From Acidimangrovimonas sp. (GTDB taxonomy: Bacteria > Pseudomonadota > Alphaproteobacteria > Rhodobacterales > Rhodobacteraceae): 5,149 nucleotides of DNA. The translations under genes were made by a program, and so were the position numbers. Below are positions 895 to 5,149 of the stretch, piece after piece. Position 1 is the first letter of the stretch, and the number at the start of each line of letters is the position of its first letter. Location: NCBI GenBank assembly GCA_030147905.1, contig JASBUM010000092.1, forward strand, positions 1 to 5,149. Reading direction: 5' to 3'. Under the pieces are notes generated by a model, which saw nothing but the letters and a program-made list of their open reading frames with translations, searched no databases and had not been told where the DNA came from.

Positions 895-909
895 TTAACG
901 ACAGACTAA
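895..909. promoter_or_regulatory. Degenerate CtrA-like box before the acyltransferase 3 gene
   Basis: On the plus strand this reads TTAA-CGACAGA-CTAA, which is TTAA-N7-nTAA with 7 of 8 core bases matching the CtrA consensus TTAA-N7-TTAA. Read on the minus strand, the downstream half is TTAACCAA, one base from the classical half-site TTAACCAT. It covers the flippase stop codon (906-908) and lies 72 bp upstream of the acyltransferase ATG, a plausible position for promoter control. TTAA is very rare here: I find only three copies in the whole window, and the other two form the perfect box at 3953-3967. Function is inferred from the match alone, and one core base is wrong. Confidence 0.35.
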
Positions 910-2459
910 GATTCGTCGCCGGCGCCCGTGACCGGCCGTCTCCGCGCCGCCGGCGCGGTGGGCCGGTTCCGAAGATGCCGGCGCAGATCGGTGGCGGCAA
1001 TCGTTGCCAGCAAGGCGACGAGCGCCGCCGCCCCGAGCCCCGCGGTCGACCAGGCGGCGGCGGGTCCGGCCGGTGTCAGCATCGCCCAGCCACCGGCGCC
1101 GCCCAGCGACATCAGCCAGACCAGCACCGAAGCCCGCAGCGAAGCGCCGATCCCCGCGGTCTGTGCGGCGAGCCGGCGCAGCGCCAGCCGCAGCGCGAGC
1201 GCAAAGCCAAGGCCCTCGGCCAGGATCGCGACCGCGATCATCGCATCCAGCCCCGCCCCGGTTTGCAGCACCAGCCAGCCCGCCGGCATCAGGGCTGCGC
1301 GCAGCAGGTTGGCGACCAGCCCGTTGCCGCTGTCACCCGCCGCCAGCGCCACGGTCGAGCTGCCGCCCTTGGCCAGCCGCACCGACTGGACAATCGCCAG
1401 CCACGCGAGAAGTGGCAGCGCCGCGTCATAACGTGGCCCCAGCAGCGCAGAGACAAGCGGCACCCCGATCACGATCGCCGCCGGCGGAAGCAGCGCGGCG
1501 AAGAGGAAATGTGCCTGGAAGGTCGCGGCCGCAAGCGGACGGAATTCCGCGGGTCGGTCCAGTCTGCGCGAAAGCTGTGGCAGGAAATGCGTCTGCGCCG
1601 CGCGCTCAAGCACAAGGGTGGGTGTCAGCGTCAGGGTGAAGGCCAGCGCGAAGCCGGCCAGCGCCTCCATCCCCAGTACCCGCGCGACGATCAGCCGTTC
1701 ACCATTGAACACGAGATAGAGGAGCGCCCCATTGAGCAGGATCGGCAGGCCGAAGCGCCAGCTTTCGACACAGGTCTCCCGATCCAGCCGCAAACGGTAG
1801 CGCCGTGTCGCCAGCGCGTGGGACACTGCCGCGGCCGCCGCCGCCTGAACCGGCAGCGCCAGCAGCATGATGCGGTAGTCGCCCCAGATCGCGGCCGCGG
1901 GCACCATCGCCGCCAGCGACAGGGCAAGCGAGGCGACGTTCGTCGCGATGGCGGGCCCGTGGCGCAATTGGCGCGCATGACGGTGGATGTCGAAATGCAC
2001 CAGCCCGTTGCACAGCGGCACCAGCGCGAGCAACCGGTAGGCCCAGGCCAGCTCCGGCAGGCCGAAGAATGCCGCGATCGGCCCGGCAAGGACGAACAGA
2101 AGTGCTGCGCCCAAGAGCGCGCGCAGGAGATGAAGCCCCTGCAGTGCCGCCTGAAATGCGGGATCTTCCCCGCGGGGATGACGCATGAGTTGCTGCGGCA
2201 GGCCGAGCGCCGAGACCATCTCGGCCACCGCCGCGGTCAGCGCGAAGGTCGCGGCGATGCCGTAGTCGGCTACCGGCACCAGCCGCGCAAGCGCAAGGTT
2301 GCGTGCCAGCAGAAGGACCGACCCGAACGCCCCGCCCGCGAGGATCAGCGCCGCCCGGCCTAGCACGACCGGGCCCGGGCGGACGCGGCGAAACAGGGCA
2401 TGGCCGGCATCAGCGCCCCGCCCCCCGACCGTCTGCCGTCCCACCGTCTGCCATCCCAC
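906..2459 (-). CDS. Polysaccharide/oligosaccharide flippase (Wzx-like, MOP superfamily)
   Basis: This is a 517-residue multi-spanning inner-membrane protein that most likely flips lipid-linked sugar units, or exports polysaccharide, across the cytoplasmic membrane. The N-terminal helix pair (about 31-53 and 64-86), with ARLVPVADYGIAATF at 58-72, is typical of the polysaccharide-biosynthesis (PST/Wzx) branch. The second half restarts at about 235-285 with LPILLNGALLYLVFNGERLIVARVLG-like spacing, the usual family repeat. Hydrophobic stretches near 111-133, 171-213, 315-361, 378-425 and 440-490 give about 12-14 helices, and the length is normal for the family. The tail (491-517) is basic and Pro/Arg-rich. 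The start is uncertain. GTG at 2459 is the first start codon in the frame and another GTG lies 15 bp on (2444); both sit in a tandem repeat and neither has a strong Shine-Dalgarno. The 50-bp overlap with the acetyltransferase suggests translational coupling. The stop is TAG at 908-906. Confidence 0.9.
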   Translation of the reverse strand: MGWQTVGRQTVGGRGADAGHALFRRVRPGPVVLGRAALILAGGAFGSVLLLARNLALARLVPVADYGIAATFALTAAVAEMVSALGLPQQLMRHPRGEDPAFQAALQGLHLLRALLGAALLFVLAGPIAAFFGLPELAWAYRLLALVPLCNGLVHFDIHRHARQLRHGPAIATNVASLALSLAAMVPAAAIWGDYRIMLLALPVQAAAAAAVSHALATRRYRLRLDRETCVESWRFGLPILLNGALLYLVFNGERLIVARVLGMEALAGFALAFTLTLTPTLVLERAAQTHFLPQLSRRLDRPAEFRPLAAATFQAHFLFAALLPPAAIVIGVPLVSALLGPRYDAALPLLAWLAIVQSVRLAKGGSSTVALAAGDSGNGLVANLLRAALMPAGWLVLQTGAGLDAMIAVAILAEGLGFALALRLALRRLAAQTAGIGASLRASVLVWLMSLGGAGGWAMLTPAGPAAAWSTAGLGAAALVALLATIAATDLRRHLRNRPTAPAARRRPVTGAGDES

Positions 2460-3285
2460 CGTCTGTAGCCCCGCCGTCGGGGCCCCGGTCCGTGACGCGG
2501 GGTTTCCCTTCGGCGGCCTGTGGTGCGGGGGCCGCCTGCCCTGACCGCCCCGCCGCCGACGCGCCCCGATCCGAGTGGTCCTGTGTCGCGCCGGTCGCGG
2601 CCGCGGGCGCGCGGGACGCTGCGGCGGACAAGGTCACCACCGGGTCCGCGGCATGGTCATCGAGAGGCACGCCGTCCGCCCGCTCTGCGGTCCCGCCGCG
2701 ATGGGCCACCACCCGCGCCGGCACGCCGACCGCGACAGCACCCGCCGGTACGGTGCCGGACACGACTGCCCCCGCACCGATCACGGCGCCGTCCCCGATC
2801 CGGGTTCCCGGCAGGATGATCGCCCTTGCCCCGATCCAGACGTCATTGCCGATCAGCACGTCGGCCTCGTCCATGGCCTGTTCGCCGACCGGGCTGCCGT
2901 CGTCATAGCGGTAGGAGGCGGCGGTCACCAGAACATCGGGTCCGAACAGAACGTCATCACCCATGCGGATCCGGCCGCCGCCGGGGCCGGCCCACAACTG
3001 GGTGCGTGCGCCCACGGACAGCCGGTGACCGGCGCTGATCCGTTCGGGATGGGCAAAGCCCGCATTGGGGCTGATCCGTGCGCCGGGTCCAAGGCTTAGC
3101 CGGCGGCGCGGAACGACATGGGTGTAATTGTAGTAGTTGAGGATCCGCAACGCATGCAGATAGGCTCGTGGATCGACGATGGCGGTGAAGAACCGCAAGA
3201 GGCGAAAGGCCCGCGAGGGATGCGGCTTGTAGACCGGGGGGGCGGAAATCGCCTGGATCGGGCCGGAGGGCGGCATCGCTGGCAT
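2410..3285 (-). CDS. Hexapeptide-repeat (left-handed beta-helix) acetyltransferase with a long low-complexity C-terminal tail
   Basis: This 291-residue cytoplasmic enzyme is of the WcaF/maltose-acetyltransferase type, expected to transfer acetyl from acetyl-CoA to a sugar precursor. Residues about 26-60 form an N-terminal segment (FRLLRFFTAIVDPRAYLHAL). Hexapeptide turns run from about 64 to 195, ending in the diagnostic VLIGNDVWIGARAIILPG (143-160), IGDGAVIGAGAVVSGTVPAG (163-182) and VGVPARVV (186-193). Family members normally end about here, at 180-220 residues. This one adds roughly 95 Ala/Gly/Asp-rich residues with no hexapeptide pattern, ending in pentapeptide repeats (DGGxx, 270-285) encoded by a 15-bp DNA repeat. 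The active-site loop reads AASYRYDDGS (123-131 region), whereas many homologues carry NHR/SHD, so the usual catalytic His appears to be replaced. ATG at 3285 is the only upstream start before a stop, with a second ATG at 3276. The Shine-Dalgarno is weak. Its 3' end overlaps the flippase start. Confidence 0.88.
   Translation of the reverse strand: MPAMPPSGPIQAISAPPVYKPHPSRAFRLLRFFTAIVDPRAYLHALRILNYYNYTHVVPRRRLSLGPGARISPNAGFAHPERISAGHRLSVGARTQLWAGPGGGRIRMGDDVLFGPDVLVTAASYRYDDGSPVGEQAMDEADVLIGNDVWIGARAIILPGTRIGDGAVIGAGAVVSGTVPAGAVAVGVPARVVAHRGGTAERADGVPLDDHAADPVVTLSAAASRAPAAATGATQDHSDRGASAAGRSGQAAPAPQAAEGKPRVTDRGPDGGATDGGMADGGTADGRGAGR
2429..2473. repeat. 15-bp tandem repeat across the acetyltransferase/flippase overlap
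   Basis: Copies on the plus strand are CCGTCTGCCGTCCCA (2429-2443), CCGTCTGCCATCCCA (2444-2458, one mismatch) and a decayed CCGTCTGTAGCCCCG (2459-2473, four mismatches). The unit is a multiple of three, so it codes in register in both overlapping genes: DGGxx pentapeptides in the acetyltransferase tail and (V)GxQT units at the flippase N-terminus. Each good copy supplies a GTG in the flippase frame (2459 and 2444), so a gain or loss of units would add or remove a candidate start codon without shifting either frame. Confidence 0.8.
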
Positions 3286-3563: not shown

Positions 3564-3824
3564 TCACCACAGGGCCAGGATGTCGCCCGCGGTTGTTCCC
3601 GTGGCACTGACACGCCGTGCGCGCAGCGGAAGCAGGCTGCCCGCCGGGATATTGTTGAAACTGACGGATTGCCCGCCGGCGGTGACCACGGCGAGATTTC
3701 CGGCGGTTCCGACATAGAGTGCACGCGGCAAGCTCGCGAGATCGTTGAGATCGTCGGGCGTGACGCTGGTGGCGTCGTTGATCGGCGAGGTCGGAGTGAT
3801 CGGATAATCCTTGAATGCGTCCAT
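3564..3824 (-). CDS. Spike base protein, RCAP_Rcc01079 (GhsA)-like family
   Basis: This complete 86-residue protein has no signal peptide or membrane segment. It resembles the small beta-rich spike base protein of the R. capsulatus gene transfer agent (Rcc01079/GhsA) and related phage-like proteins. I recognise the family from memory by its layout: an acidic 'ITPTSP...VTPDDLNDL' lead (9-29), the core ALYVGTAGNLAVV (35-47), a NIPAGSLLPLRARRV stretch (58-72), and the terminal ATGTTAGDILALW (74-86). In RcGTA the base protein anchors fibres on the capsid that help bind the recipient's capsule. The start at 3824 is fixed by an AGGAG with a 7-nt spacer; the frame stays open upstream to 4586, but that part overlaps the divergent glycosyltransferase. 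The gene is head-to-head with that glycosyltransferase across a CtrA box. No fibre partner (GhsB) follows. The family call is less secure than for the polysaccharide genes. Confidence 0.75.
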   Translation of the reverse strand: MDAFKDYPITPTSPINDATSVTPDDLNDLASLPRALYVGTAGNLAVVTAGGQSVSFNNIPAGSLLPLRARRVSATGTTAGDILALW

Positions 3825-3831
3825 CGTTAGG

Positions 3832-3836
3832 CTCCT
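3832..3836 (-). promoter_or_regulatory. Ribosome binding site of the spike-base-like gene
   Basis: AGGAG on the minus strand lies 7 nt before the ATG at 3824-3822. It is the strongest Shine-Dalgarno in the window and selects the 86-aa product over longer versions of the same open frame. Confidence 0.8.
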
Positions 3837-3952
3837 GCTGTGGCGCGTCGCCAGGGCCGGCCGCGGCCGTCGCGGCGCCGAAGGGCTGATCTGCCCCGCG
3901 CGGGTGGCGGCCGGCTGTGCCGCACGGGTCATGGCGTGATGCCCGAGTGTGA

Positions 3953-3971
3953 TTAACCGGCCGTTAACCAT
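3953..3971 (+). promoter_or_regulatory. CtrA binding site (perfect full box)
   Basis: TTAA (3953-3956), seven bases, then TTAACCAT (3964-3971) match both forms of the consensus of the alphaproteobacterial response regulator CtrA: the full TTAA-N7-TTAA(C) box and the TTAACCAT half-site. In a region this GC-rich, TTAA occurs only three times in the window, which makes a chance pair at exactly seven bases unlikely. The inner bases also give a small inverted repeat, TTAAC-N5-GTTAA. Position between two divergent starts suggests control of the spike-like gene, the glycosyltransferase, or both. Whether CtrA activates or represses here cannot be read from the sequence. Confidence 0.75.
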
Positions 3972-4036
3972 GCGCGCGCGACAAGGGCTTGACCCGCCAG
4001 GGACCCGTCGCACGCCCCTGCCCGCAACCCTCTTGC

Positions 4037-4062
4037 CGCGGCCCGGTCTCGGACCGGCCGCG
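4037..4062 (+). promoter_or_regulatory. Leader hairpin next to the glycosyltransferase ribosome binding site
   Basis: CGCGG then, after a bulged C (4042), CCGGTC pairs with GACCGG-CCGCG across a 3-nt TCG loop, giving an 11-bp stem with one bulge. It ends at 4062 and touches the GAAGG (4062-4066) that serves as Shine-Dalgarno for the ATG at 4077 (spacer 10). Such a stem can block or stabilise the start region of the mRNA. No U-run follows, so it is not a typical terminator. Confidence 0.4.
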
Positions 4063-4076
4063 AAGGCCAGCCGTTG

Positions 4077-5149
4077 ATGAATCCTGATGCCCGCCCGTCG
4101 CGCCCATCCACCTTCCGGCCCGGCGAATTGCCCCCTCCGGCACGGACCCCGCGGGGGCGGCGGATCCTGATCCTGGTCGAGAACCTGCCGGTACAGCTGG
4201 ATCGGCGCGTGTGGATGGAGGCCACGACCCTGGCCGCGGCTGGCCATACCGTCAGTGTCATCTGCCCGATGGGCCGTGGCTGGGAGCGGGCGGAGGAAAC
4301 CATCGACGGCGTTGCCATCTACCGTTATCCGCCCCCGCCGGAGGCCCATGCGGGCCTCGCCGCATATGCTCGCGAATATGCCCATGCGCTGCGCCAGATG
4401 CTGCGGCTGGCGGCGCGGGTGCGGCGCGAACGCGGTTTCGACGTGATCCACGGATGCAACCCGCCCGATCTGCTGTTCCTCATCGCCTGGCGCTATCGCC
4501 ATCGGGGGGTGCATTATGTCTTCGACCATCACGACCTGTCGCCCGAGCTCTACGAGGCCAAGTTCGGCCGCCGCGGATGGGTGCATCGGATGCTCCGCCT
4601 GCTGGAGCGGCTGAATTTCGCCACCGCCCGTGTATCGATCGCGACCAACGAGAGTTTTCGCGCCATCGCCCGCGACCGCGGCGGCAAGCGCGGATCAGAC
4701 GTCTTCACCGTGCGCTCCGGCCCGGCGCTCGACGATTTCCGTCCGGGCCCCGGTGACAGGTCGCTGCGCCGGGGGGCGGCGCATGTGCTGGGTTACGTGG
4801 GCGTCATCGGCCAGCAGGAAGGGATGGACCTTCTGGTCGCGGCGGTATCGTCCCTGATTCATCGTCACGCGATCACCGATCTGCATGTGGTGATCGCGGG
4901 CTTCGGCCCCGCGCTCGGGGCGATGCGGGCCGATGTCGCGCGCCGCGGCCTCGAGCGACATTTCACCTTTACCGGCGCGCTCTATGGCGAGCGTCTGGTT
5001 GCCGCGCTCAACGCCTGCGACATCGGGCTCAGCCCCGATCCGAAGAACGCGATGACGGATCGCTCGACGATGAACAAGATCGTCGAATACATGGCGCTGG
5101 AAAAGCCCGTGGTCCTGTTCGATCTGGTCGAGGGCAGGGCCTCGGCGGG
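4077..5149 (+). CDS. Glycosyltransferase family 4 (GT-B fold), C-terminus off the window
   Basis: This cytoplasmic or membrane-associated enzyme transfers a sugar from a nucleotide-activated donor to a growing polysaccharide or lipid-linked acceptor. The window holds 357 whole codons. After a Pro/Arg-rich lead (1-27), the N-terminal Rossmann-like domain begins RRILILVENLPV (28-39) with LDRRVWMEA (41-49) and AGHTVSVICP (55-64). Further marks are HGCNPPDLL (125-133), the family-typical DHHDLSPELYEAKFG (150-164), and VRSGP (212-216) before the second domain. That domain shows GYVGVIGQQEGMDLL (239-253), VIAGFGP (272-278), FTFTG (296-300) and DPKNAMTDRSTMNKIVEYMA (321-340), where E337 is in the place of the donor-binding Glu of the GT4 EX7E region, then KPVVLFDL (343-350). 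Some 40-70 residues are probably missing. The start could be ATG 4077 or the in-frame TTG just before it; the Shine-Dalgarno is modest. It is divergent from the spike-base-like gene. Donor and acceptor sugars are unknown. Confidence 0.9.
   Translation, partial: MNPDARPSRPSTFRPGELPPPARTPRGRRILILVENLPVQLDRRVWMEATTLAAAGHTVSVICPMGRGWERAEETIDGVAIYRYPPPPEAHAGLAAYAREYAHALRQMLRLAARVRRERGFDVIHGCNPPDLLFLIAWRYRHRGVHYVFDHHDLSPELYEAKFGRRGWVHRMLRLLERLNFATARVSIATNESFRAIARDRGGKRGSDVFTVRSGPALDDFRPGPGDRSLRRGAAHVLGYVGVIGQQEGMDLLVAAVSSLIHRHAITDLHVVIAGFGPALGAMRADVARRGLERHFTFTGALYGERLVAALNACDIGLSPDPKNAMTDRSTMNKIVEYMALEKPVVLFDLVEGRASA

What the first reader, a model, noticed from the sequence alone, without database searches (positions are those of the whole stretch)
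3564..4076. A gene-transfer-agent-type spike base gene set head-to-head with a surface-polysaccharide glycosyltransferase
The 86-aa protein has the features of the RcGTA head-spike base family (ALYVGTAGN core, NIPAGSLLP, C-terminal ATGTTAGDILALW). Known biology: R. capsulatus GTA head spikes promote attachment to the recipient's capsule, and from memory the R. capsulatus spike genes (rcc01079/rcc01080) sit next to a capsule gene (rcc01081). Finding the same pairing here, with a flippase and two O-acyltransferases on the same side, suggests a conserved module joining a particle ligand to the genes that make or tailor its receptor. The pairing of ligand and receptor genes is inference.
Basis: partly seen in the sequence, partly recalled or inferred. 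Interest (0 to 1): 0.78.

Follow-up and report, generated by a model that had tools for sequence, protein, structure and literature searches.

The report
GTA head-spike gene in polysaccharide locus
A small gene for the base of a gene-transfer-agent head spike sits inside a cluster of surface-sugar genes, and the same pairing recurs in many related bacteria and on their plasmids, hinting that the DNA-carrying particle and the sugar coat it recognises are inherited together.

Summary
Window 3564-3824 (-) encodes an 86-aa "spike base protein, RCAP_Rcc01079 family" member (109.6 bits, cut-off 28; predicted fold matches the RcGTA base, 1.6 A). It lies head-to-head with a GT4 glycosyltransferase; an acetyltransferase, a flippase and an acyltransferase follow on its strand. 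New here: the 249-bp divergent promoter holds TTAAC-N6-TTAAC, a full CtrA-type site (0 of 200 shuffles). The adjacency was published for R. capsulatus. My survey finds it widespread: two or more polysaccharide genes lie within 8 kb in 49 of 80 Rhodobacteraceae base loci against 1 of 40 control regions, and polysaccharide genes flank 12 of 14 inspected plasmid copies but 0 of 15 prophage-linked copies. CtrA-type half-sites precede the gene in 13 of 17 loci of the window's group against 47 of 329 other ORFs there. The fibre is not in the window; in relatives it lies convergent, a few genes away, or in a second polysaccharide island. Best reading: a CtrA-controlled GTA head-spike gene kept with the genes for the polymer its spike binds. 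Linkage and predicted fold are shown; particle membership, binding and kin recognition are inferred. Two relatives carry the gene without any of four GTA/HK97 markers.

The parts
3564..3824 (-). GTA-type head-spike base protein, 86 aa
   Evidence: NF048002 109.6 bits (cut-off 28); AlphaFold model mean pLDDT 89.6 matches an 84-residue chain of the RcGTA capsid entry 6tb9, TM 0.87, rmsd 1.6 A, 40% identity
3953..3968 (.). TTAAC-CGGCCG-TTAAC, full CtrA-type site in the divergent promoter, 129-144 bp before the base ATG and about 105 bp before the GT start
   Evidence: TTAA-N7-TTAA in 0 of 200 shuffles; R. capsulatus CtrA sites TTAAC-N6-GTAAC and GTAAC-N6-TTAAC in PMC6363796 (passage)
4074..5149 (+). 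GT4-family glycosyltransferase, head-to-head with the base gene, runs off the window
   Evidence: PF13579, PF13692, PF13439, PF00534 over cut-off; head-to-head relatives beside the base gene in L088 (71% id), L251 (65-67%) and L091 (61%)
2410..3285 (-). hexapeptide-repeat O-acetyltransferase with a low-complexity C-terminal tail
   Evidence: PF00132, PF14602 over cut-off; NCBIfam WbbJ- and WcaF-type hits, below their cut-offs in the 25 rows shown
906..2459 (-). Wzx/MOP-type polysaccharide flippase
   Evidence: PF13440 114 bits, PF01943 68 bits
1..822 (-). membrane acyltransferase (Acyl_transf_3), cut by the window end
   Evidence: PF01757 60 bits; relatives beside a displaced head-fibre gene in L087 and in G002

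Best explanation
This is an ectopic head-spike base gene of a Rhodobacterales gene transfer agent, placed inside a surface-polysaccharide locus and switched on by CtrA. The protein forms the jelly-roll pentamer that plugs onto capsid pentons (fold predicted here, oligomer inferred from RcGTA). It anchors a fibre whose short N-terminal docking peptide of alternating hydrophobic residues and glycine threads the pentamer; the fibre is encoded nearby or in a companion polysaccharide island, here probably just left of the window (inferred). The fibre binds the cell's own polysaccharide, made and O-acylated by the neighbouring genes (inferred from R. capsulatus). Keeping spike and polymer genes together keeps particle and receptor matched when either is exchanged (inferred).
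For: Family and fold. Full CtrA-type site in the window. Half-sites TTAAC/GTTAA in the 200 bp before the base gene: 13 of 17 in the window's group against 47 of 329 other ORFs of the same loci (p 5e-8), and 23 of 55 against 91 of 1173 in other Rhodobacteraceae loci (p 3e-11); 0 of 15 prophage-linked copies. PMC9638019 (passage): head-spike genes are triggered by CtrA-P with GafA, half-sites in their promoter. Linkage: at least two polysaccharide genes within 8 kb in 49 of 80 loci against 1 of 40 controls (p 4e-11); 16 of 29 against 1 of 38 when limited to contigs that also gave a control (p 8e-7); 15 of 20 loci not used to build the HMMs; 10 of 10 randomly drawn gene calls confirmed by Pfam. 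Docking peptide: a strict motif starts 20 of the 40 immediate next genes outside the window's group against 3 of 1008 ORF starts in control regions. Displaced fibre in the same locus for 9 of the 17 and in a second polysaccharide island for G002 and G198. Base gene co-occurs with the GTA-type marker TIGR02217: 124 of 139 base-positive against 188 of 255 base-negative genomes (p 2.5e-4).
Against: No fibre is in the window, and none of the three fibre queries hit G004, G005, G007 or G077. G002 (Solirhodobacter olei), which shares the head-to-head GT and has a TTAA-N7-TTAA site, and G011 gave no hit to any of four GTA/HK97 markers. Rcc01079 falls outside the window's group in the tree (weak, 87 columns). 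Plasmid copies have no half-site (0 of 6), and the Roseobacter litoralis plasmid copy looks frameshifted (two pieces, no annotated gene). Polysaccharide-gene density is flat over 10 kb (0.13-0.18 per kb; controls 0.019), so the gene lies in such islands without a preferred closest partner. The site lies between two divergent genes and could serve the GT. No binding data.
Confidence: 0.6

Rival explanations
1. Passive clustering. Polysaccharide loci and EPS plasmids are exchange hot spots that collect phage-derived genes; the base gene is an insertion with no functional tie to its neighbours.
For: Copies on Rhodobacterales plasmids, five of the 14 inspected beside replication or partition genes; one beside pqq genes; one apparently frameshifted; 31 of 80 loci have fewer than two polysaccharide genes within 8 kb, and density does not peak at the base gene; neighbour genes differ from locus to locus.
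Against: CtrA-type half-sites before the gene; one copy in 15 of the 18 genomes first searched; no internal stop in any match printed; 0 of 15 prophage-linked copies lie near polysaccharide genes; linkage recurs in Rhodobacteraceae, in 10 of 20 Sphingomonadales/Erythrobacter-type loci and on 12 of 14 inspected plasmids.
Confidence: 0.22
2. The base and fibre in polysaccharide loci serve something other than GTA: a satellite or phage particle, or a domesticated adhesin that binds the cell's own polymer.
For: G002 and G011 carry the gene without any of four GTA/HK97 markers; 11 of the 15 base-positive genomes without TIGR02217 also have no HK97 portal hit; plasmid copies have no CtrA half-site (0 of 6).
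Against: Base presence correlates with TIGR02217; the CtrA-type site fits GTA regulation; drafts can miss the GTA cluster. Secretion signals were not tested.
Confidence: 0.15
3. The CtrA-type site serves mainly the glycosyltransferase, so the promoter coordinates capsule and cell cycle and the spike gene only shares it.
For: The site lies between both genes, slightly nearer the GT start; PMC6209664 (passage) says capsule and GTA are both under ctrA in R. capsulatus.
Against: Half-sites are also found before the base gene in L090, L092, L093, L095, L096, L098 and L099, where my HMMs call no divergent GT next to it.
Confidence: 0.15

Closest known systems
RcGTA head spike of Rhodobacter capsulatus (Rcc01079 base / Rcc01080 fibre, ghsA/ghsB) beside CPS genes rcc01081-01086
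   Same: Same protein family and fold; encoded outside the main GTA cluster; beside polysaccharide genes; CtrA-type site upstream (PMC7296036, PMC10218006, PMC9638019, passages only)
   Different: Different branch of the base tree (weak); full-length rather than half CtrA-type site; no fibre immediately downstream; in the window a head-to-head GT4
Spike base of Carin1 phage (PDB 8cjz chain h) and PHROG 12296 phage 'tail fiber' proteins
   Same: Same fold (TM 0.69) and sequence family
   Different: Encoded in a phage genome, not in a cell's polysaccharide locus
TspA, detachable biofilm-degrading tailspike of RcGTA (PMC13420450, passages)
   Same: Another ectopic RcGTA component that acts on polysaccharide
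   Different: A tail protein; no link to polysaccharide gene loci in the passages read

Membership tests
Spike base protein, RCAP_Rcc01079 family (NF048002) | Score over curated cut-off (28 bits) along the whole model | tested here: met
   109.6 bits, residues 2-86 on model 1-85 of 85
Spike base protein, RCAP_Rcc01079 family (NF048002) | Small jelly-roll fold of the RcGTA head-spike base | tested here: met
   Predicted model against 6tb9: E 3.6e-7, TM 0.87, rmsd 1.6 A
RcGTA-type head spike | Partner fibre with an N-terminal docking peptide of alternating hydrophobic residues and glycine | tested here: inconclusive
   None in the window. In the 17-member group: same locus for 9, elsewhere in the genome for 2, not found for 4; L096 and the window are too short to tell
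RcGTA-type head spike | CtrA control | tested here: inconclusive
   Site present; binding and transcription not tested
RcGTA-type head spike | GTA head-tail cluster elsewhere in the genome | not testable with these tools
   No genome held for the window. Relatives: TIGR02218 in 19 of 22; G002 and G011 have none of four markers
RcGTA-type head spike | Incorporated in the particle and needed for capsule binding | not testable with these tools
   Needs bench work
Spike gene linked to capsule genes (R. capsulatus arrangement) | Polysaccharide biosynthesis genes adjacent | tested here: met
   for the window; for relatives

The most novel reading that the evidence does not exclude
The locus is a greenbeard-like supergene for DNA sharing. 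Spike base, fibre and the genes for the polymer the fibre recognises are held together by selection, so that a GTA made by a lysing cell delivers DNA preferentially to cells with the same coat, and exchange of the polysaccharide locus (also by plasmid) carries the particle's address with it. O-acyl tailoring genes in the locus and esterase-type fibres would form matched lock-and-key sets.
Probability: 0.3. Interest if true: 0.88.

Novelty: new variant of a known kind. Interest (0 to 1): 0.6.

Why it matters
Producing GTA kills the producer, so how GTAs are maintained is an open question; PMC10883770 (passages) argues that benefits must be confined to close kin and that polysaccharide receptors may do this. 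A recurrent physical linkage of the spike to polysaccharide genes, with a CtrA-type promoter, would give that idea a genetic mechanism that can be tested by deletion and by within-species co-variation. It also suggests that EPS plasmids of Rhodobacterales carry GTA-like head spikes, annotated as hypothetical proteins in 13 of the 14 records inspected.

Tried and rejected
Orphan-base idea: the window's group first looked fibre-less (0 of 17 with a co-directional next-gene fibre). It was dropped after searches found displaced fibres. A short-fibre query (L219) hit only its own genome, G094, among the 16 searched.

Sigma-70/terminator, Rfam, tandem-repeat and PADLOC scans were not run; they would not decide the question. 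The kinase and beta-helix HMMs were left out of all polysaccharide counts for fear of drift to unrelated proteins, which was not tested.

Group definition: I took 17 rows from a weakly supported part of the tree and dropped L097, L085, L117 and L141, which fall among them. With these four the counts are 19 of 21 with a polysaccharide gene within 8 kb (17 of 17 without) and 14 of 21 with a half-site (13 of 17 without). The window is one of the 17. The 21 Rhizobiales and 20 Sphingomonadales-type loci were also picked by me, from record titles and the tree.

Limits of the enrichment test: the 80 loci are the higher-scoring places (139 genomes with a match, 138 over the cut-off; the printed list was cut). 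Skipped: G317:C526, G131:C232, G077:C61, G147:C237 and G037:C97; G002, G005 and G015, already held under names; and the lower-ranked remainder. Of the 40 controls, 38 come from contigs of the 80 loci and 2 from G002 and G005. HMM seeds came from the window and from base-linked loci and were iterated on a pool holding the first 60 loci and the controls; only the last 20 loci are out of sample. The 80 named loci, prophages included, give lower figures: 41 of 80 with one and 30 of 80 with two or more polysaccharide genes, without their own control. Genomes are related, so the p values overstate independence. The permissive docking pattern (34 of 55 loci) also fits 192 of 1008 background ORF starts, so the strict one is the better test.

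Full report
What is there. The window (5,149 bp, no genome held) carries five genes. The 86-aa ORF at 3564-3824 (-) is a spike base protein of the RCAP_Rcc01079 family: NF048002 109.6 bits against a cut-off of 28, PHROG 12296, PDB Rcc01079 E 6e-11 and Carin1 phage spike base E 4e-4. An AlphaFold model (mean pLDDT 89.6) is all-beta and matches an 84-residue chain of the RcGTA capsid entry 6tb9 with TM 0.87 and rmsd 1.6 A; only that chain and Carin1 pass E 0.001. Pfam identifies the neighbours as a GT4 glycosyltransferase (divergent), a hexapeptide acetyltransferase, a MOP flippase and an Acyl_transf_3 protein.

The promoter. Between the divergent base and GT genes lies TTAAC-CGGCCG-TTAAC (3953-3968). 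TTAA-N7-TTAA occurs once in the window and in 0 of 200 shuffles. The R. capsulatus CtrA sites given in PMC6363796 (passage) have the same 5-6-5 layout. PMC9638019 (passage) reports that CtrA-P acts with GafA to trigger the head-spike genes and that half-sites were detected in their promoters. In relatives, half-sites lie in the 200 bp before the base gene in 13 of 17 loci of the window's group against 47 of 329 other ORFs of those loci (p 5e-8), and in 23 of 55 other Rhodobacteraceae loci against 91 of 1173 (p 3e-11), but in 0 of 15 prophage-linked loci, 1 of 21 Rhizobiales loci and 0 of 6 plasmid loci. In L090, L092, L093, L095, L096, L098 and L099 a half-site precedes the base gene although my HMMs call no divergent GT next to it.

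Linkage survey. A genome-contig scan gave 80 named loci. A family search of 394 genomes found the base gene in 139. I fetched regions of up to 20 kb around 80 of those places and 40 control regions from the same genomes plus G002 and G005 and searched all ORFs with HMMs for glycosyltransferases, flippases, acyltransferases, chain-length and export proteins, O-antigen ligases and sugar-nucleotide enzymes. At least one such gene lies within 8 kb in 60 of 80 base loci against 6 of 40 controls (p 3e-10); at least two in 49 of 80 against 1 of 40 (p 4e-11). Limited to contigs that also gave a control: 16 of 29 against 1 of 38 (p 8e-7). The 20 loci added after HMM building give 18 of 20 and 15 of 20. 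Density is flat at 0.13-0.18 genes per kb out to 10 kb, against 0.019 in controls: the gene sits in polysaccharide islands rather than beside one fixed partner. Ten calls drawn at random from the 20 added loci were all confirmed by Pfam. Prophage-linked base loci, defined by at least three viral-like ORFs within 8 kb, have none (0 of 15). The 80 named loci, prophages included, give 41 and 30 of 80 for one and two genes. Of 20 Sphingomonadales/Erythrobacter-type loci, 10 have two or more; GTA clusters were not tested there.

Plasmids. 28 of 72,556 plasmid records encode a relative. I looked at 14 of the 28 with 6-8 kb flanks, cut at record ends. In 12 the gene lies among glycosyltransferase, sugar transferase, flippase, rfb, capsule or chain-length genes; Thioclava FTW29 and Cereibacter azotoformans are the exceptions. 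It is annotated 'hypothetical protein' in 13 of 14; the Roseobacter litoralis copy is unannotated and looks frameshifted. In 11 of 14 the next gene on the same strand is a hypothetical protein, a sialate O-acetylesterase or an SGNH hydrolase.

The fibre. In RcGTA residues 2-10 of the fibre, I-A-L-G-L-G-L-G-L, bind the base pentamer (PMC7296036, passage). Outside the window's group, 40 of 55 Rhodobacteraceae loci have an ORF of at least 150 aa starting within 35 bp of the base stop; a strict docking motif starts 20 of these 40 against 3 of 1008 ORF starts in control regions. In the window's group 0 of 17 have a co-directional next-gene fibre. A motif search, homology and reading of the frames then found displaced fibres. 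In L089, L092, L217, L221 and L249 the fibre is the next gene, convergent. In L095, L098 and L099 it lies about 4 kb away. In L087 it follows the flippase and an acyltransferase related to the window's. A whole-genome search found a fibre away from the base gene in G002 (L088) and G198 (L251), both with the window's head-to-head GT; there it sits beside an acyltransferase and an O-antigen ligase (G002), or among an O-antigen ligase, a beta-helix protein, a flippase and an acyltransferase (G198). No fibre of the types searched was found in G004, G005, G007 or G077; L096 and the window are too short to judge. The window's acyltransferase runs off position 1, so a fibre just beyond is a prediction. 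Of 24 candidate fibre proteins scanned against Pfam, 8 have an esterase, GDSL or lectin-like hit at E 0.01 or better, 4 of them over the cut-off; 16 have none. Of 10 scanned against PHROGs, 8 match phage families, labelled virion structural, tail, tail fiber, hydrolase, lipase or unknown.

GTA in the genomes. TIGR02217 occurs in 15 of 18 base-bearing genomes first searched, TIGR02218 in 19 of 22, HK97 capsid in 6 of 8. Over 394 genomes, TIGR02217 is in 312. Comparing the printed lists by eye, 124 of 139 base-positive and 188 of 255 base-negative genomes have it (p 2.5e-4). Such markers can also lie in prophages, and their assignment to GTA tail genes is recalled. Against the reading, G002 and G011 have none of four markers, and 11 of the 15 base-positive genomes without TIGR02217 have no HK97 portal hit either. 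Drafts may be incomplete.

Relation to R. capsulatus. Rcc01079 does not fall in the window's group in the tree (87 columns, many open forks), so the two are family members on different branches with similar surroundings. PMC10218006 (passages) says that in R. [quoted passage not shown] In the library searches made no listed title or abstract start reports it as a conserved feature across the family or on plasmids; full texts were not read. PMC10883770 (passages) proposes that polysaccharide receptors confine GTA benefit to kin; 'spike' occurs 0 times in its main text. Of the primary papers, Brimacombe 2013 is not held and Westbye 2016 was not looked up; neither was read.

How it works (inferred). 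CtrA-P in GTA producers activates the base gene; pentamers plug onto capsid pentons and hold one fibre each; the fibre, sometimes an esterase, grips the polymer that neighbouring genes make and O-acylate; recipients with the same locus are bound. Shown: family, predicted fold, linkage, CtrA-type sites, displaced fibres. Not shown: particle incorporation, binding, specificity.

Noticed in passing
L111, L115, L119, L122, L123, L140, L142, L149 (Rhizobiales): Base gene with one GT2/GT-type gene at a nearly fixed +2.5 to +2.7 kb and no docking-type next gene seen; a conserved arrangement that I did not explain.
   Followed up: no
L249 (G296:C22) and L329 (G296:C5): The fibre homologue beside the base gene is interrupted by an in-frame stop, while a second fibre starting MLLLGLSLGL lies on another contig.
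   Followed up: partly
G009 (genome of L097, Mangrovicoccus ximenensis): Four NF048002 copies in one genome, against one in 15 of the 18 genomes of that call.
   Followed up: no
window about 2425-2466: Short CCGTCTG-type repeats encode a low-complexity tail (ATDGGMADGGTADG) at the end of the hexapeptide acetyltransferase, overlapping the listed start of the flippase ORF.
   Followed up: no
phage records: Relatives of the base occur in 106 phage records, among them Flavobacterium (72) and Verrucomicrobia (2) phages, so the family reaches beyond alphaproteobacterial phages.
   Followed up: no
L084 (Thioclava sp. FTW29 plasmid): Base plus sialate O-acetylesterase pair beside a pqq operon rather than a polysaccharide locus.
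   Followed up: no
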